Shown here piece after piece: positions 7,986-55,330 of a DNA stretch of 64,000 nucleotides. The notes beneath the pieces are model-generated. The model was not told the DNA's origin. It did no database searches and saw nothing but the letters and a program-made list of their open reading frames with translations. How positions within the stretch are numbered: position 1 is the stretch's first letter; each line of letters starts with the position of its first letter. The position numbers were made by a program, and so were the translations under genes. The stretch is from Salinimicrobium catena. Lineage in GTDB: Bacteria > Bacteroidota > Bacteroidia > Flavobacteriales > Flavobacteriaceae. The stretch is from the NCBI RefSeq assembly GCF_900102915.1, contig NZ_FNGG01000002.1, positions 647,097 to 711,096 on the forward strand. The letters are read 5' to 3'.

Positions 7986-9242
7986 TTACTGCTGTGCTTC
8001 AATTTCAGCAACCTTTTGCTTCATTTCTTCAGCTTTTGCGGTTTCATTCAATTGATAGTACATGTTCATCATAGTTCTTGCAGCTTCAACGTTGTTGGGA
8101 TCTTTCTCCAATACCTTCTCAAGGTGTGGCAGAGCATCCCTGTATAACTGGTTACGTTGCTCAGCAAGCTGGTCGTATTTCTTTTGATCGGCTTTGCTCA
8201 TTCCAAGGCTGTTCATTTCATCTACAATAGGACGTTCTTTAGCCAGGATAACGTATGCAAGGTTAATTCGAGCATTGTGCATTGAAGGGTCAAGCTCAAT
8301 AGCTCTTTTATAGTAGTCCATTGCACGGTCATTCTCGCCCATTTGAGCAGCGCTTACACCAAGGTTATAATATAGTACAGCGTCATCTGGGTTCTGCTCT
8401 ACGATCTTCTCCATGATCTCACGGTACTTCGCCATGTTATCCATGCGGTAGTACATATCGGCTTCAGCCTGCATAAGACTTACATCACCAGGATTTTCTT
8501 CCTTGGCATTTTCGATGGCCGCAATAGCTTTTTCATCTTCACCTTTTTCAATATAGATAAGGGCGATGTTCTTGGCAATCTCTCCTTTTTTAGATTCTGA
8601 AACTTCGTCTTTCGGGTTGGTATAGTTCCCAGATTTTACGAAAAGATCTCTCTGCTCTTTATTAGCCATTCTTTCAACCTCTCCGGTTTCTTTATTTACA
8701 GCCGTGTAAACTGTTTCTTCTCCTGTAAAACCAAGATCTCTAAGCTCCTCGTAATATTCTAGAGCTTTCCCATAGTCCTTGGCGTTCACAGCGTTTGAAG
8801 CCGCGTAGTAAAGATAAACGGTATCCTGTTTGTTAAGCTGGTAACCGGTGAACAATTTGTCAGCCGCTTCAGAAAATTTCTGAGCATTCTGATCTGCGAT
8901 CGCACCATTTACCAATGCGTTACTCGCTGCCATCATTCCCTGCTGAGCATCATCGTGTCCAAGTTCAGCTGCTTTCTGAAATGCATCGGCAGCTGCCATA
9001 AGGTCAGCTGTAGGAACGTTTTCCCCTGTTCCAATCAATGCGTATCCTTTATAAAGATAAAAATCTGCTTTTTCATCCTCATCTGCATTGGTTAATTGTG
9101 CCTCTGCCTGCTGAAGATAATTTTTAGCTTCCTTATATTCACCTTTTTCGACTGCTTTACCTGCACGTCTTATTTCTTTTTTCTGGCCAAATGCCACTAC
9201 TGTGAACATGGCTAAGGCTGCTGTCAGTATTCTTGTTTTCAT
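7986..9242 (-). CDS. Exported tetratricopeptide-repeat protein
   Basis: A 418-residue protein starting with a typical signal peptide (MKTRILTAALAMFTVVAFG, cleavage near Q20) and then almost wholly helical TPR units. Clear repeats include DDAVLYYNLGVSAAQMGEND with DRAMDYYKRAIELDPS, the latter near residue 310. Such proteins are periplasmic or envelope-associated scaffolds; the partner is unknown. The gene lies 17 nt downstream of gyrA on the same strand, so it is likely co-transcribed with it and ends at the 7941-7969 terminator. Confidence 0.85.
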   Translation of the reverse strand: MKTRILTAALAMFTVVAFGQKKEIRRAGKAVEKGEYKEAKNYLQQAEAQLTNADEDEKADFYLYKGYALIGTGENVPTADLMAAADAFQKAAELGHDDAQQGMMAASNALVNGAIADQNAQKFSEAADKLFTGYQLNKQDTVYLYYAASNAVNAKDYGKALEYYEELRDLGFTGEETVYTAVNKETGEVERMANKEQRDLFVKSGNYTNPKDEVSESKKGEIAKNIALIYIEKGEDEKAIAAIENAKEENPGDVSLMQAEADMYYRMDNMAKYREIMEKIVEQNPDDAVLYYNLGVSAAQMGENDRAMDYYKRAIELDPSMHNARINLAYVILAKERPIVDEMNSLGMSKADQKKYDQLAEQRNQLYRDALPHLEKVLEKDPNNVEAARTMMNMYYQLNETAKAEEMKQKVAEIEAQQ

Positions 9243-9259: not shown

Positions 9260-11836
9260 TTATTCTTCACTATCATTTGCAATAGTTGTGCCATCGTTGG
9301 AATCACCTGTATTATCAAGGTTTCCATCAATTCCATCTTCCTCTAAACTGTCCGCGATTTCCTCAACATCCTCTTCTTCTTTCATCACTTTAGCCACAGC
9401 CGCGATGGAATCATTGCCCTTGAGGTTGATCAATCTCACCCCCTGGGTGGCACGTCCCATAACTCTTAAACTGTCTACTGAAGTTCTAATCGCAAGACCA
9501 GATTTATTGATGATCATAAGATCATCCCCGTCTTTCACATTTTTAATGGCTACAAGATTTCCGGTCTTATCTGTGATAGAAATGGTCTTTACACCTTTTC
9601 CGCCACGGTTGGTGATCCTGTAGATAGGCTCCCCGTCTTCAGGGTCATCTATATAAGTACGTTTTCCATAACCGTTTTCAGAAACCACCAGCACCGTTTC
9701 TTCCTGAGGGTCCTGGATTGCGATCATTCCTACTACCTCATCGTTATCATCGGCAAGAGTGATACCTCTTACCCCCGAAGCGTTCCTTCCCATTGGGCGG
9801 GTCTTGCTCTCCTCGAATCGGATGGCTTTGCCGCTTTTCAGCGCCAGCATTACCTGGCTGTTTCCGGTAGTAAGTCTTGCCTCGAGCAGCTCATCCCCTT
9901 CCCTAATGGTGATCGCGTTGATCCCGTTAGTTCTTGGTCTGGAGTACTGCTCAAGAGAGGTCTTTTTCACCTGACCTTTTTTAGTAGCCATTATCACATA
10001 GTGGCTGTTGATGTATTCTTCGTCCTTAAGGTCCTGAGTACAGATGAACGCTTTCAGTTTGTCATCCGGCTCCAGGTTGATAAGGTTCTGGATCGCTCTT
10101 CCTTTAGAAGTCTTGCTTCCTTCAGGGATCTCAAAAACCCTCATCCAGAAACATTTTCCTTTTTCAGTAAAGAACAACATGTACTGGTGGTTTGTTCCTA
10201 CGAACAAATTCTCAAGGAAATCTTCATTCCTGGTGGTAGAACCTTTTTGGCCTACTCCTCCCCTGTTCTGAGTCTTGTATTCGGTAAGGGAAGTCCTTTT
10301 TATATAACCCGCGTGAGAAATGGTAATTACCACCTGCTCATCGGGGATCATATCTTCCATGCTTAGATCTCCTCCGGAATATTCTATAGTAGAGCGTCTT
10401 TCGTCACCATACTTTTCTTTCACCTCGATCATCTCATCTTTGATGACCTGCATTCTGCGCTCTTTTCTGGCAAGGATATCCTTAAGGTCTTCTATGGTAG
10501 CCATCAATTCTTCGTACTCGGCTCTTAACTTATCCTGCTCCAGACCGGTTAACTGTCTCAAGCGCATTTCCACGATCGCCTTCGCCTGCACTTCAGTCAG
10601 TTCAAAACGCTCGATCAATTTGGCTCTGGCCTCATCAGCATTGTTTGAAGCCCTTATCAGCGCGATCACCTCATCAATATTATCAGAAGCGATGATCAAC
10701 CCTTCAAGAATGTGTGCTCTTTCTTCAGCCTTTCTTAATTCATATTCGGTCCTTCTCACTACCACCTCATGCCTGTGCTCCACGAAATAGTGGATCATAT
10801 CCTTCAGGTTAAGCATTTGAGGACGTCCTCCAACCAGAGCGATATTGTTTACGCTAAATGAGCTTTGTAAAGCGGTATGCTTATATAGGGTGTTAAGTAC
10901 AATATTTGGGATCGCATCTCTCTTCAGAATATAAACGATGCGCATACCATTCCTGTCTGACTCGTCCCTGATGAGGGAAATACCTTCGATCTTCTTGTCA
11001 TTTACCAGCTCGGCTGTCTTCTTGATCATTTCGGCCTTGTTCACCTGGTAAGGGATCTCTGTAACAACAATGGCTTCTTTGCCGTTCACCTCTTCGGTAT
11101 GAGCTTTTGCCCGAAGTACCACGCGGCCTCTACCTGTTTTGAATGCTTCCCTTACTCCGTCGTATCCGTAGATTATACCTCCTGTTGGAAAATCGGGAGC
11201 TTTGATATGTTCGATAAGTTCATCAACCTCTATATCGTGGTTATCGATGTAGGCTACTACTCCGTCAACAACTTCCGAAAGGTTGTGCGGAGGCATATTT
11301 GTGGCCATACCTACCGCGATACCACTGGCCCCGTTCACCAAAAGGTTCGGGATCCTGGTTGGCAGCACCACCGGCTCATGAATGGTATCGTCAAAGTTAA
11401 GTTGGGTATCTACAGTCTCCTTGTCGATATCGGCCAGCATGTCCTCACTTATCTTGCGCATTCTTGCTTCTGTATATCGCATCGCTGCAGGGCTGTCACC
11501 GTCAATGGAACCGAAGTTACCCTGACCATCGACCAGCATATAACGCAGGCTCCATTCCTGGGCCATACGCACCATAGTATCGTAAACTGAAGAATCTCCG
11601 TGCGGGTGGAACTTACCTAAAACTTCCCCTACAATCCTCGCTGATTTTTTATGTGCCCGGTTAGAAAGAACACCCAGCTCATACATTCCATATAAAACCC
11701 TTCTGTGCACAGGCTTTAAACCATCACGTACATCTGGCAGGGCACGTGACACAATGACCGACATCGAATAATCAATGTAGGCCGACTTCATTTCATCTTC
11801 AATGTTGATAGGAATTAACTTTTCTCCTTCAGCCAT
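9260..11836 (-). CDS. gyrA: DNA gyrase subunit A
   Basis: A complete 858-residue GyrA. With GyrB it forms the A2B2 gyrase that negatively supercoils DNA. The N-terminal breakage-reunion domain carries the active-site Tyr at residue 121 ([10 protein letters not shown]). The quinolone-resistance region reads [10 protein letters not shown], with S82 and D86 at the positions of E. coli S83 and D87, so no classic resistance substitution is visible. The GyrA-box appears as Q-R-G-G-V-G-Q-K-G-like [10 protein letters not shown] near residue 535, followed by the six-bladed C-terminal wrapping domain. The last 40 residues are strongly acidic. A TPR gene follows 17 nt downstream. Confidence 0.97.
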
Positions 11837-40241: not shown

Positions 40242-43031
40242 ATGATAGTAGACGTTTCTAATGTAGATCCAAAACAAAATATAATCATAAAGGGAGCCAA
40301 GCTCCACAACCTTAAGAACATCAACGCGATCATTCCGCGGAACAAGCTGGTAGTGCTAACCGGCCTTTCCGGCTCCGGGAAATCCTCCCTCGCCTTTGAC
40401 ACTTTATATGCTGAAGGTCAGCGTCGATACGTGGAGAGTTTGTCATCATATGCCCGACAGTTCCTCGGAAGGCTGAACAAGCCGCAGGTAGACTCCATAA
40501 AAGGGATCGCGCCGGCCATTGCCATAGAACAAAAGGTAAATTCCACCAACCCCCGGTCTACGGTGGGTACTTCTACGGAAATATATGATTACCTGAAATT
40601 GCTTTTCGCCCGCATTGGCAGGACCTACTCCCCTGTTTCGGGTGAGGAGGTGAAGAAAGATACGGTTACCGATGTGGTGGATTATGTGAAGTCTTTTCCT
40701 GAAGGTTCAAAAATGCTGCTCCTGGCTCCCGTTCATGTAGAGGAAAGCCGTACAGCCGAAGAGAAACTCAAAGTACTGCTCCAGCAGGGATACAGCCGTA
40801 TCAAAACCGGCAAAGATGTGCTTAGGATAGATGAAGCCGATCTGTCTAAAGTCGGAAAAAAAGATCTTTTCCTGGTTGTTGACAGGATCGTGACCAAAAC
40901 AGAGGATGAAGATTTTCTGAACCGCCTTGCCGATGCTGTACAAACCGCCTTTTTTGAAGGAAAGGGAGAACTTTTTATAGAAACACTTGCAGACGGAAAA
41001 GTAAGACAGTTCAGCAATAAGTTTGAGCTGGATGGCATGAGCTTTCTGGAGCCGAACGTGCACCTCTTCAGTTTCAACAATCCGTATGGCGCCTGTCCAA
41101 AATGTGAAGGTTACGGGGATGTTATCGGCATAGATGAAGACCTGGTGATCCCCAACACCGCCCTCTCTGTTTATGAAAACGCCATTTTTCCGTGGCGCGG
41201 CGAGAGCATGAGCTGGTACCGCGACCAACTGGTAAACAACAGTCATAAATTCAATTTTCCGATACATAAACCTTATTACGACCTTACCCAGGAACAAAAA
41301 GATCTTATCTGGAACGGAAACCAATATTTTGAAGGACTGAATGAATTTTTCGCTTTCCTGGAATCCAAGGCATATAAGATCCAGAACCGGGTGATGCTAT
41401 CCCGTTACCGCGGAAAGACCCGCTGCCCTATTTGCAAAGGAAAAAGATTAAGGCCAGAAGCCAATTATGTGAAAATAGGTGGCGCTACGATCACCGAACT
41501 GGTGGAAATGCCTATCAATAAAGTGGCTCAATTCTTTGATGAACTTAAGCTGAATGAATATGATGCGGCCATAGCCAAAAGATTGCTTACCGAAATTCAG
41601 AACCGTTTGCATTTTTTGACCCGGGTAGGCCTCGAATACCTCACCCTGAACCGAAAATCGAACACGCTTTCGGGTGGGGAGTCACAGCGTATTAACCTGG
41701 CTACTTCTCTTGGGAGCAGCCTCGTGGGCTCTATGTACATCCTGGATGAACCTTCAATAGGATTGCATCCACGGGATACTCAAAAATTGATCGGAGTATT
41801 GCAATCCTTGCGAGATTTGGGCAATACAGTGATCGTGGTGGAACACGACGAGGACATCATGAAGGCGGCCGATGAGATCATTGACATTGGCCCCGAAGCC
41901 GGAACAAACGGTGGAGAGGTCGTTGCCGCCGGAACTTTTGAAGACATTCTTGTGTCTGACTCCCTTACCGCTAAATACCTGAACAATTCGCTACAGATCG
42001 AAGTTCCGGAAAAACGAAGAACTTCGAAATATTATGTGGATATCATAGGGGCCCGCGAGAACAATCTTAAAAATATTGATGTGCGTTTTCCTCTTGGGGT
42101 TTTTACGGCAGTTACGGGAGTTTCCGGGAGCGGAAAAAGTACCCTTGTCAAAAGGATCCTGTACCCAGCCATGCTTAAAGAAGTGGGTGGCTATGGCGAG
42201 AAAGCTGGGCAATTCACGGGGATCGAGGGCAGTTTCAGCAACATTGCTTCGGTTGAATTTGTAGATCAAAATCCAATTGGCCGTTCCTCCAGGTCAAATC
42301 CGGTCACATATATCAAAGCCTATGATGATATCAGGAACCTGTTTTCAAATCAGAAGCTCAGCAACATCCGTGGGTATAAACCCAAGCATTTTTCATTCAA
42401 TGTAGACGGCGGGCGGTGTGAAACCTGTAAGGGAGAAGGCGAAGTAACCATCGAGATGCAGTTCATGGCCGATGTTCACCTGGTTTGCGAGACCTGTAAC
42501 GGAAAAAGGTTCAAAAAAGAGATCCTGGAAGTCACTTTTGCCGACAAGAACATAGACGACATCCTGAATATGACCATAGATGATGCCGTGGACTTTTTCA
42601 AAGCATACGGCGAAGATAAGATCACTTCAAAACTGAAGCCTTTGCAGGATGTGGGACTGGGATATGTGCAGTTGGGGCAGAGCTCCTCTACTCTTTCGGG
42701 CGGGGAAGCACAGCGGATAAAACTGGCTTCCTTCCTGGTTAAAGGAACCACAAAGGAAAAGGCATTGTTCATTTTTGACGAACCTACTACCGGATTGCAT
42801 TTTCATGATATTCAGAAGCTGCTGAAATCTTTCAATGCACTTCTTAAGAAGGGCCATTCGGTTATTGTGATCGAACATAACATGGACCTGGTGAAGTGTG
42901 CAGATCATGTGATAGATCTTGGCCCAGAAGGCGGCGAAGCCGGCGGAAAGCTGGTTGGATTCGGGACTCCCGAAGAAGTCGCCGAAATCCCTGATTCCTA
43001 TACGGCTCCTTTCCTCAAAGAGAAACTTTAA
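40242..43031 (+). CDS. uvrA: Excinuclease ABC subunit A
   Basis: A 929-residue UvrA, the damage-recognition ATPase of nucleotide excision repair. Two ABC modules are present: Walker [10 protein letters not shown] near residue 45 with signature LSGGESQRI, and Walker [10 protein letters not shown] near residue 628 with LSGGEAQRI. Zinc-finger cysteine pairs are seen at [26 protein letters not shown] and CETCNGKR. The length and insertion pattern fit a full UvrA; Bacteroidota often carry two, and I cannot tell whether this is the only copy. A sigma-54-like sequence begins 23 nt after its stop. Confidence 0.94.
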
Positions 43032-43051: not shown

Positions 43052-43071
43052 TTTTGGCACAACCTTTGAAT
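43052..43071 (+). promoter_or_regulatory. Sigma-54-like promoter, copy 1
   Basis: TTTTGGCACAACCTTTGAAT fits the -24/-12 pattern TGGCAC-N5-TTG-C/A-A, with exactly 10 nt between GG (43056-43057) and the -12 GA. It matches the second copy 141 nt downstream at 18 of 20 positions. The predicted start is about 43081. Confidence 0.55.
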
Positions 43072-43125
43072 TATTTTGATCAAGTTGCAAGATTAAGTTA
43101 TACATAATTTAAGTTGTAATTAATA

Positions 43126-43147
43126 ATTTTTTGGTTGGTTAGTTTGA
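43126..43147 (+). repeat. 22-bp repeat before a terminator, copy 1
   Basis: A 22-bp sequence (ATTTTTTGGTTGG followed by TTAGTTTGA) is identical to 44393-44414. Here it is followed directly by the 43148-43182 terminator. Confidence 0.9.
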
Positions 43148-43182
43148 GAACCCCGTGGTGCATTTTGCCCCGGGGTTTTCTT
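43148..43182 (+). terminator. Intrinsic terminator after uvrA / putative sRNA
   Basis: AACCCCG and CGGGGTT (43149-43155 with 43171-43177) pair with extra inner G-C pairs, followed by TTTC and TT. It separates the two sigma-54-like promoters. Confidence 0.85.
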
Positions 43183-43192
43183 ATTAACATAG

Positions 43193-43212
43193 TTTTGGCA
43201 CAGCTTTTGAAT
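43193..43212 (+). promoter_or_regulatory. Sigma-54-like promoter, copy 2
   Basis: TTTTGGCACAGCTTTTGAAT, with GG at 43197-43198 and GA 10 nt further on. The predicted start near 43222 leaves a 41-nt leader before the ATG at 43263. No TAnnTTTG box is better placed. Confidence 0.6.
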
Positions 43213-43262: not shown

Positions 43263-44378
43263 ATGAAAAAAATCTATGCATTTTTTGCTTTTTTAGTGAT
43301 TGGTTTCTCTGCGAAGGCTGCGGTAGCCGACAATTACCGTAACTCATACGGAGAGGCCTTTATCTTTGTTGAAGGCGGAGTTGAGTTTGCCGTTTATCCA
43401 GATGGGCAGTTCGATTTCTATTTTAACCCTCGCCACACGGGCTACAGTGTGAATATTGCCACTCCTCATGTGAATTTCAGCTATAACTCCGGGTATAATT
43501 ATGATCCGTTTGTACAGTATGACGACTTTGGCGCAGTGATCCAGATCGAAAATGTTCCTATCTATTATGATTACTACGGAAGGATCATCCAGGCAGGGCA
43601 TGTGAACATCTCTTACAATCATTTCGGAAGATTGTCAAGAGTGGGGCATCTGTACCTGCACTATAACCATCACAATCACTTTACTCATTATACGGGATAT
43701 ATTAACAGGTATAACCGCCACTATGTATACCGTCCATGGCACAGGCATTATGTACGGCCACAGGCGCATTTCGCGATCGTGTACCACCAGCCATACAGGG
43801 CGCATTACCACCCAGAAAGGATGGGATATGGTCTTTACAAGAATTATTACAAAAAGCACCATAAGAAGAACTTTAAACGCAGTTATTACAGGCCCGGTGA
43901 CCGCGTCGCTACTTATCACAGAGGAAGAAGATCTACTGCTCAACGTGATCTTCGTGAAACGAACAGGTATTCAGAACCTGCGGCAACCAGAACCCGAAGC
44001 AATGTGAATACAACCCGTGACAGAAGACCTTACCAGCTTCGTGATACAGAGCGTTCCGCGACCCGAAAAGCCCAGGTACAGCGAAGGGAAAGTACTCAGC
44101 GTCGTAGTACGCACTATAGAAAAGAGAGAGCCACGGTTGGTCGTGATGAGACAAGGTCCAGAAGGGCCTCTGCAAGAGAAGTAAAAAGAAGCTCGAGACA
44201 GGATGCCCGAAGGAGTACTGAAGCCAGAAGAGGTTCTGCTGTAACTTCTAAGAGAGAGACAGTAAAAAGAAACAGCCGCGCAAGAGGAGCTCAGCGTGCA
44301 GAACGTGCGCAGGCAGATTCAAGAGCCGAGGCTTCATCTTCCAGGGGAAATAAAAGAAGTTCCCGCGGAAGAGGATAA
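43263..44378 (+). CDS. Secreted Tyr/His-rich protein with long Arg/Ser-rich tail
   Basis: A 371-residue protein with a signal peptide (MKKIYAFFAFLVIGFSAKA). Residues 24-215 are strikingly rich in Tyr, His and Asn, in short strand-like repeats such as YYDYYGRIIQAGHVNISYN and RVGHLYLHYNHHNHF. Residues 220-371 are almost all Arg, Ser, Thr, Ala and Glu (RRSTEARRGSAVTSKRE) and must be disordered and highly basic. I know no function; extracellular metal, polysaccharide or nucleic-acid binding would suit the composition. I start at the ATG at 43263 because the signal peptide begins there. The gene has a sigma-54-like promoter and its own terminator. Confidence 0.8.
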   Translation: MKKIYAFFAFLVIGFSAKAAVADNYRNSYGEAFIFVEGGVEFAVYPDGQFDFYFNPRHTGYSVNIATPHVNFSYNSGYNYDPFVQYDDFGAVIQIENVPIYYDYYGRIIQAGHVNISYNHFGRLSRVGHLYLHYNHHNHFTHYTGYINRYNRHYVYRPWHRHYVRPQAHFAIVYHQPYRAHYHPERMGYGLYKNYYKKHHKKNFKRSYYRPGDRVATYHRGRRSTAQRDLRETNRYSEPAATRTRSNVNTTRDRRPYQLRDTERSATRKAQVQRRESTQRRSTHYRKERATVGRDETRSRRASAREVKRSSRQDARRSTEARRGSAVTSKRETVKRNSRARGAQRAERAQADSRAEASSSRGNKRSSRGRG

Positions 44379-44392
44379 TATTATCATAGTTG

Positions 44393-44414
44393 ATTTTTTG
44401 GTTGGTTAGTTTGA
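44393..44414 (+). repeat. 22-bp repeat before a terminator, copy 2
   Basis: Identical to 43126-43147 and, as there, immediately followed by a terminator stem. The stems themselves differ in sequence. Confidence 0.9.
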
Positions 44415-44456
44415 AAATTCCCGAAAGTCTTAAAAAGCTTTCGGGAATTTCTTTTT
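44415..44456. terminator. Bidirectional intrinsic terminator
   Basis: A perfect 13-bp stem AAATTCCCGAAAG / CTTTCGGGAATTT (44415-44427 with 44438-44450) is followed by C-TTTTTT. It ends the secreted-protein gene and faces the convergent flippase gene. Confidence 0.9.
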
Positions 44457-55159: not shown

Positions 55160-55330
55160 AAAAAAAAGCCTGTATTAGTAGTGGTTTTGTATAAACTCTT
55201 TAAAATCACGTTTAGGGCTAACAAGCTGATCAAGAATCCGTTCAAAGACGGCCCGCTTTTACAACTTAAACTCACCCTTTTTAAAGAATTGGTGTTGAGT
55301 TTATCAAAAAAAATAACTAATACAGGCAGT
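55160..55330 (-). ncRNA. ssrS: 6S RNA
   Basis: On the minus strand a 12-bp perfect closing stem (GCCTGTATTAGT, complement of 55316-55327, with its partner at 55168-55179) brackets about 135 nt. It is followed by a T-run ending near 55160. Inside, GATAAACTC pairs with GAGTTTATaC, leaving asymmetric internal loops and a long central part that can form the bubble used by 6S RNA to mimic an open promoter. Its place right after zapA is the classic 6S location. The exact ends are estimates. Confidence 0.85.

What the first reader, a model, noticed from the sequence alone, without database searches (positions are those of the whole stretch)
43052..43182. Sigma-54-driven small RNA next to a gene with the same promoter and 3' end
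Two sequences, 43052-43071 and 43193-43212, match at 18 of 20 bases and fit the sigma-54 -24/-12 pattern with the required 10-nt GG-to-GA spacing. The first is followed by about 100 nt with no reading frame, a 22-bp repeat and a strong terminator. The second drives a secreted-protein gene that ends in the same 22-bp repeat and another terminator. The first unit looks like a gene-less copy of the second. The shared 3' segment could let an RNA compete for whatever acts on the mRNA 3' end.
Basis: partly seen in the sequence, partly recalled or inferred. Interest (0 to 1): 0.72.

Follow-up and report, generated by a model that had tools for sequence, protein, structure and literature searches.

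The report
Sigma-54 small RNA sharing mRNA tail
Next to a gene for a secreted protein, this flavobacterium has what looks like a small RNA gene with the same kind of promoter and the same end sequence as its neighbour; relatives keep it and it matches no catalogued RNA family, so it may well control other RNAs through the shared sequence, but no expression has been tested.

Summary
At 43052-43182 lie a sigma-54-type promoter, a ~100-nt unit without a reading frame (two hairpins flanking single-stranded UUUUUUGGUUGGUUAGUUU) and a terminator. The next gene (43263-44378, secreted, no Pfam match) has a near-identical promoter and the same 22-bp segment at its 3' end. Promoter, motif and second promoter recur in 11 of 11 congeners. 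'Sigma-54 site, short gap, GGTTGGTTAGT' hits 58 of 397 genomes of the family (63 places; reversed pattern 0) and 0 of 206 of other families. Of 79 distinct units, 34 have the secreted gene directly downstream; 22 others lie beside a Band-7-like gene. So this is an independent RNA family, not merely a gene-less copy. No Rfam family matches above threshold. The motif also follows the secreted gene in 70 of 80 named relatives. In one large clade the neighbour's 5' mRNA end carries long complements of the motif; in the window it does not convincingly, and phylogenetic correction leaves modest support. Best reading: a sigma-54-driven trans-acting sRNA working through this GU-rich module, most likely by base pairing. 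Expression, target and mechanism are untested.

The parts
40242..43031 (+). uvrA-type gene upstream (UvrA_inter, UvrA_DNA-bind)
   Evidence: a uvrA-like C-terminus precedes many of the units that have the secreted gene downstream (by eye)
43052..43071 (+). sigma-54-type -24/-12 promoter of the sRNA (core 43055-43068); predicted start near 43080
   Evidence: such a site precedes the motif in 11 of 11 congeners
43079..43182 (+). predicted sRNA, about 104 nt, no reading frame of its own
   Evidence: no transcript data
43083..43121 (+). 5' hairpin of the sRNA
   Evidence: fold; leaders fold better than shuffles, mean z -2.31 over 79 units
43126..43147 (+). module ATTTTTTGGTTGGTTAGTTTGA, single-stranded in the fold (core GGTTGGTTAGTT 43133-43144)
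   Evidence: the three T before GGTTGGTTAGT are kept in 76, 79 and 78 of 79 units (GGTTGGTTAGT itself was the selection criterion)
43146..43180 (+). intrinsic terminator of the sRNA (stem with a bulge, then T run)
   Evidence: missed by the simple scan
43193..43212 (+). sigma-54-type promoter of the secreted-protein gene (core 43196-43209)
   Evidence: a site of this type lies within 600 nt upstream of the gene in 80 of 80 named relatives
43263..44378 (+). secreted-protein gene, 371 aa, signal-peptide-like start (by eye), Arg-rich C-terminus, no Pfam or NCBIfam family
   Evidence: relatives in 159 of 199 family genomes
44393..44414 (+). second copy of the 22-bp module, 14 nt after the stop codon
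   Evidence: motif within 250 nt after the stop in 70 of 80 named relatives, five spellings allowed
44415..44450 (+). intrinsic terminator of the gene

Best explanation
The unit is a gene for a sigma-54-dependent trans-acting small RNA of about 100 nt: 5' hairpin, single-stranded (U)6GGUUGGUUAGUU, intrinsic terminator. It belongs to a family found so far only in one bacterial family, Flavobacteriaceae. When sigma-54 and its activator respond (in F. psychrophilum such promoters drive chaperone, gliding and exported-protein genes, PMC9723704), the sRNA and the secreted-protein mRNA would be made together. The GU-rich module is the working part and most likely acts as a base-pairing seed on C/A-rich sites in mRNAs; in one large clade, and perhaps a few other lineages, one such site is the first ~20 nt of the neighbour's own mRNA. 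The mRNA's 3' UTR carries the same module and so could act on the same targets or compete for the same partner. Shown by sequence: promoter-like sites, architecture, predicted structure, conservation, two genomic settings, shared module. Inferred: transcription, sigma-54 control, seed function, targets.
For: Repeats and promoter-like sites. 11 of 11 congeners. 58 of 397 family genomes, 63 places, reversed pattern 0; 0 of 206 genomes of other families. In 79 distinct units: terminator-like fold below -8 kcal/mol in 78 of 79; module unpaired probability 0.65 on average against 0.39 for the whole RNA (78 units); leader z below -1 in 63 of 79. Two genomic settings. RpoN in the genome. Pairing: 40 sRNA-adjacent leaders pair better with the core than 122 others (-11.4 vs -5.5 kcal/mol, MWU 7.7e-13; 15 of 40 vs 4 of 122 at p up to 0.05 against permuted cores; 13 of 40 vs 3 of 122 in a second run, z -1.41 vs 0.34). 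The 27 adjacent leaders at -10 or better have sites starting at +1 to +13 of the assumed start. With the extended module, forward beats reversed in the adjacent group (p 0.006) and helices of 14 bp or more are 11 forward vs 2 reversed.
Against: No expression data. The -12 element is GA rather than GC. Over 80 named relatives there is no general leader complementarity (mean z +0.10, 7 of 80 below 0.05). The pairing signal comes mainly from one clade: adjacency changes about 9 times on the gene tree, and contrasts leave r -0.18, p 0.012 on energy and p 0.031 on z. The reversed core gives almost the same group difference (-10.65 vs -5.70), and forward beats reversed only at p 0.063 with the core; GGUUGG reads the same both ways. 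In the window forward and reversed modules pair equally (-12.4 vs -12.7), and most congeners examined have weak sites. Beside the Band-7-like gene there is no overall signal (mean z +0.36, 22 loci, two below -2). After the LuxE-type gene the module is often predicted paired. A calculation running past the terminator gave module unpaired 0.45.
Confidence: 0.5

Rival explanations
1. Decoy or mimic: the sRNA is a free-standing copy of the mRNA 3' module and titrates an unknown protein or RNase that acts on GGUUGGUUAGU ends.
For: The same strand, not the complement, is shared by sRNA and mRNA; the module is kept at the gene's 3' end whether or not an sRNA is adjacent (32 of 40 and 109 of 122 with at most one mismatch); it also precedes terminators of other transcripts.
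Against: No candidate protein: Hfq found in 0 of 21 genomes, RRM_1 not found in this genome; other RNA-binding families were not searched. Leader complements in one clade suggest pairing.
Confidence: 0.27
2. The module is only a 3'-end or terminator-associated element that aids termination or 3' stability; the sRNA is a by-product of a duplicated promoter-terminator unit with no trans function.
For: The module lies directly before terminators in several unrelated transcripts.
Against: Units of the same layout occur in two genomic settings in many genera, with leaders that fold better than shuffles; four tandem copies in one genome (L207). The module is rare: 4 to 8 exact copies of GGTTGGTTAGTT per congener genome at least 90% complete, so it is not a general terminator part.
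Confidence: 0.18
3. A chance sigma-54-like match in an intergenic region; the unit is transcribed, if at all, by read-through from uvrA or from another promoter.
For: Short promoter consensus with GA at -12; no expression data. One weak sigma-70-type match lies inside the unit, at chance level (2 found in the stretch, 2.7 expected).
Against: 11 of 11 congeners; reversed pattern 0 in 397 genomes.
Confidence: 0.05

Closest known systems
FopS sRNA family of Bacteroides thetaiotaomicron (Rfam RF04319; PMC11697453, passages seen)
   Same: Same phylum; paralogous sRNAs sharing one single-stranded sequence plus a Rho-independent terminator; intergenic (9), antisense (4) and 3'-UTR-derived (1) members; the shared sequence pairs with the 5' part of target mRNAs.
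   Different: FopS uses canonical housekeeping promoters, has its seed at the 5' end and associates with RbpB (an RRM protein, recalled). Here the promoter is sigma-54 type, the module lies between two hairpins, no RRM_1 protein was found in the genome, and the FopS model gave only E 4.5 on the other strand.
Rfp36, putative regulatory RNA with a sigma-54 (SM4) promoter in Flavobacterium psychrophilum (PMC9723704; abstract, passages and part 1 of section 15 seen)
   Same: Flavobacterial sRNA downstream of a -24/-12 promoter, in a regulon that includes exported proteins of unknown function.
Sigma-54-dependent sRNAs of proteobacteria: GlmY, Qrr, CrcZ (sigma-54 control recalled; GlmY as decoy seen only in the abstract start listed)
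   Same: sRNA made from a sigma-54 promoter; GlmY (and CrcZ, recalled) act as decoys for a protein.
   Different: No sequence comparison made beyond the Rfam scan; they work with Hfq or RapZ (recalled), and Hfq was found in 0 of 21 genomes here.
GcvB (recalled)
   Same: GU-rich single-stranded seed acting on C/A-rich mRNA leaders.
   Different: Hfq-dependent and gammaproteobacterial (recalled); not compared in sequence beyond the Rfam scan.

Membership tests
sigma-54 (RpoN) promoter | -24 element TGGCA(C/T) and 10-nt spacing to a TTG-type -12 element | tested here: met
   RpoN DNA-binding domain in the genome
sigma-54 (RpoN) promoter | GC at -12 (classical consensus, recalled) | tested here: inconclusive
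   both window sites have GA; the base after TTG is A in 38 of 79 family units
sigma-54 (RpoN) promoter | rpoN-dependent transcription start about 12 nt downstream of -12 | not testable with these tools
   no RNA data
bacterial trans-acting sRNA | own promoter and terminator, no reading frame, conserved structure | tested here: met
   within the genus set covariation is thin, 4 of 21 pairs with a double change
bacterial trans-acting sRNA | acts on an RNA encoded elsewhere | tested here: inconclusive
   leader complementarity in some clades only
FopS sRNA family (RF04319) | match to the Rfam model | tested here: not met
any Rfam 15 family | match above the family's gathering score | tested here: not met
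   only 6S-Flavo, elsewhere in the window. Below threshold: six weak hits up to E 1 on nine relative loci and nine up to E 5 at the window locus, one of them (PyrR site, E 0.68, 25.5 of 54 bits) over the unit
Rfp36 | sequence homology | not tested
   sequence not available; lookups in supplementary files are capped at 0
Hfq-dependent sRNA | Hfq in the organism | tested here: not met
   0 of 21 genomes, found in 5 of 14 control genomes including E. coli
decoy sRNA (GlmY/CrcZ-like) | binds and titrates a specific protein | not testable with these tools
   no binding data

The most novel reading that the evidence does not exclude
GGUUGGUUAGU plus terminator is a general 3' module of flavobacteria without Hfq, placed on sRNAs and on selected mRNA 3' UTRs, that recruits an unknown RNA partner or matchmaker; the sigma-54 sRNA is the module in free form, so the signal that makes the mRNA also makes its soluble competitor, and in some clades that competitor also pairs with the mRNA's 5' end.
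Probability: 0.25. Interest if true: 0.8.

Novelty: new variant of a known kind. Interest (0 to 1): 0.58.

Why it matters
sRNA regulation in flavobacteria is little known, and no Hfq was found in the 21 genomes searched. A conserved, compact, sigma-54-type sRNA family with one 11-nt module gives a direct handle: delete or scramble 11 nt and ask what changes. The sharing of that module between an sRNA and the 3' end of its neighbour bears on how sRNAs and mRNA 3' ends are linked in bacteria without known RNA chaperones.

Tried and rejected
Chance or artefact: rejected and the zero control.

Plain tandem copy of the neighbour: rejected by the second setting and the separate 5' hairpin.

General pairing of the module with the neighbour's leader: tested and not found over 80 relatives. 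Kept only as a clade-limited signal after permuted-core, reversed-core and phylogenetic checks. Versions that included the T run against shuffled leaders are prone to A-rich matches.

Pairing with the Band-7-like neighbour at the second locus: no overall signal, 22 loci, mean z +0.36; two loci (L193, L235) are individually below -2.

Other sigma-54 genes with the complement: 99 of 397 genomes have a hit to TGGCAYN5TTG-(5-35 nt)-YTRACCAA, and the reversed control also hits a number of genomes; judged by eye from the matched strings only, the clear cluster is the secreted gene. I did not classify the hits one by one.

Protein function: no Pfam or NCBIfam match for the window protein; 24 relatives gave four families with one weak member each; no PDB relative up to E 0.1; the structure model was too poor for a fold search (mean pLDDT 44.5), so none was run.

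Known RNA: Rfam. Literature, listings only unless said: 'GGTTGGTTAGTT' anywhere in text (9 papers, by their titles none about this element); RpoN/sigma 54/flavobacteria/sRNA (50 papers, 20 listed); F. psychrophilum transcriptome (2); RbpB (102, 8 listed); Bacteroidetes sRNA and Hfq (20, 15 listed); sigma-54 sRNAs (6). None of the listings or passages that I saw described this RNA. Passages of PMC12316311 (a sigma-54 regulon survey) did not mention it. The library holds open-licence PMC papers only.

Full report
Setting. The window is G000:C14:647097-711096 of a 3.26-Mb genome. The nearest named relative of the secreted gene is a Salinimicrobium MAG. RpoN is present.

Observation. TGGCAYN5TTG occurs 5 times in 64 kb against 1.13 expected; two of these are 141 bp apart. 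The -12 element is GA, not GC. From the predicted start the unit folds into two hairpins with the module single-stranded between them, z -4.7. It has no reading frame of its own.

Conservation. In 11 of 11 congeners the order promoter, GGTTGGTTAGT, second promoter is kept (first seen by similarity). In an alignment of ten units (window and nine relatives) TTTTTGGTTGGTTAGTTT is invariant and the leader varies; RNAalifold gives a 5' stem and the terminator stem, 4 of 21 pairs with at least one double change, so covariation within this set is thin. Among 80 named relatives of the gene a sigma-54-type site lies within 600 nt upstream in 80 of 80, and a GGTTGGTTAGT-type motif (five spellings) follows the stop codon within 250 nt in 70 of 80; 16 of 80 have the motif upstream too, 15 of those with a sigma-54 site before it. 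The call that fetched them kept the best 80 of 543, so they lean to close relatives.

An sRNA family. Sigma-54 site, 16-76 nt, GGTTGGTTAGT was found in 58 of 397 genomes of the family, 63 places, 43 of 237 genera; the reversed pattern gave none. In an order-wide draw of 246 genomes it was found in 2 of 40 of the family (one being this genome) and 0 of 206 outside it. Leaders fold better than shuffles: mean z -2.31, 63 of 79 below -1, 40 below -2. A terminator-like fold follows in 78 of 79; the module's mean unpaired probability is 0.65, above 0.5 in 56 of 78; an earlier calculation running past the terminator gave 0.45. 34 of 79 have the secreted gene directly downstream. 22 others lie divergent from a gene with a common start (about 286 aa where whole); the one tested is Band_7 (E 2.8e-23). 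The remaining units have other or unclear neighbours. One genome has four tandem copies (L207). No Rfam family matches above threshold.

The module elsewhere. GGTTGGTTAGTT occurs 4-8 times per congener genome at least 90% complete, the reversed control 0-1. Besides the two copies here it precedes terminators after a LuxE-type gene (PF04443 in L071), after a small exported protein without a Pfam family (L069), in a gpsA/nadD-type intergenic region, and after a ClpB-type gene in two other genera (gene names other than LuxE by eye, from recall). Many of the copies in ten genomes are not followed by a terminator that my simple test could see (the test also misses some visible ones), so the motif alone is not diagnostic.

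Mechanism tests. Hfq: 0 of 21 genomes, 12 of them of this genus; found in 5 of 14 control genomes. RRM_1: none in this genome, found in 2 of 14 controls. Pairing with the neighbour's leader: over 80 named loci no overall signal (mean z +0.10, 7 of 80 below 0.05). Of 34 sRNA-adjacent loci several show 14-19 contiguous pairs, but only 6 of 34 reach p 0.05 by shuffles (mean z -0.78). A wider set had 179 loci; 4 without a start codon near the expected place were dropped, leaving 175 and 162 distinct leaders. sRNA-adjacent leaders (40; adjacency meant GGTTGGTTA(A/G)T within 450 nt upstream of the gene's promoter, no sigma-54 site required) pair better with the core than the other 122: -11.4 vs -5.5 kcal/mol; z against permuted cores -1.41 vs 0.34. 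Against this: adjacency changes about 9 times on the gene tree; contrasts give r -0.18, p 0.012 on energy and p 0.031 on z; permuted cores as a group also pair better with adjacent leaders (-8.30 vs -6.15), which are richer in C (0.20 vs 0.15); and the reversed core gives nearly the same group difference (all). Forward beats reversed only at p 0.063 with the core. With the T run included forward is better in the adjacent group (p 0.006; difference between groups p 0.0009), helices of 14 bp or more being 11 forward vs 2 reversed there and 2 vs 0 elsewhere. The window shows no preference (-12.4 vs -12.7), and most congener leaders pair weakly. So leader pairing is likely in one big clade (Aequorivita and relatives), possible in a few other lineages, and unproven here.

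Literature. In F. psychrophilum, SM4 (-24/-12) promoters drive chaperone, gliding and exported-protein genes and one putative sRNA, Rfp36 (PMC9723704; abstract, passages and part 1 of section 15). Whether Rfp36 is related could not be checked. A heavily sampled genus of the family (g127) had no hit; if that is Flavobacterium, which I cannot confirm, Rfp36 is probably a different RNA. The closest kind in the phylum is FopS (PMC11697453, passages).

Verdict. A conserved, uncatalogued sigma-54-type sRNA family with a module shared with mRNA 3' ends. That it is an sRNA gene I hold at about 0.9; that it acts by pairing through the module, 0.5.

Noticed in passing
window 55193-55300 (-): 6S-Flavo RNA (RF01685, 106.4 bits), the only Rfam match in the window at gathering score.
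   Followed up: no
window 9280-9293 (-): A sigma-54-type site (TGGCACAACTATTG) inside the end of a gyrA-like gene (name by eye), about 38 nt upstream of a 418-aa exported-protein-like gene (7986-9242 -); possibly its promoter.
   Followed up: no
L071 1456-1548 and equivalents in L003, L087, L088, L089, L090, L094, L098, L251, L255, L293: 3' UTR of a LuxE-type gene: small hairpin, GGTTGGTTAGTT and in most a terminator; in several an upstream CCGACTTA/CCGACCAAA/CCGACTAAC segment is predicted to pair with the module, possibly a switch.
   Followed up: partly
L073, L075, L080, L083, L294: TTTTTTGGTTGGTTAGTTAG plus terminator, with a hairpin before it in at least four, in the region between gpsA-like and nadD-like genes: a possible second sRNA with the same module; no sigma-54 site and no strict housekeeping-promoter match in the 230 nt scanned.
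   Followed up: partly
L207 (G385) and L199 (G123): Tandem copies of the sRNA unit: four in one genome, about 200-280 nt apart, and two in another.
   Followed up: no
leaders of the Band-7-like gene at the second sRNA locus, e.g. L193, L195, L212: A recurring element like ATATCTTTATGATATCATTTTAATATCA upstream of the start codon, possibly an operator (by eye).
   Followed up: no
L070, L072, L091: The exact complement AACTAACCAACC lies just before a start codon in the same sequence context in three congeners: a candidate sRNA target, perhaps on a mobile element.
   Followed up: no
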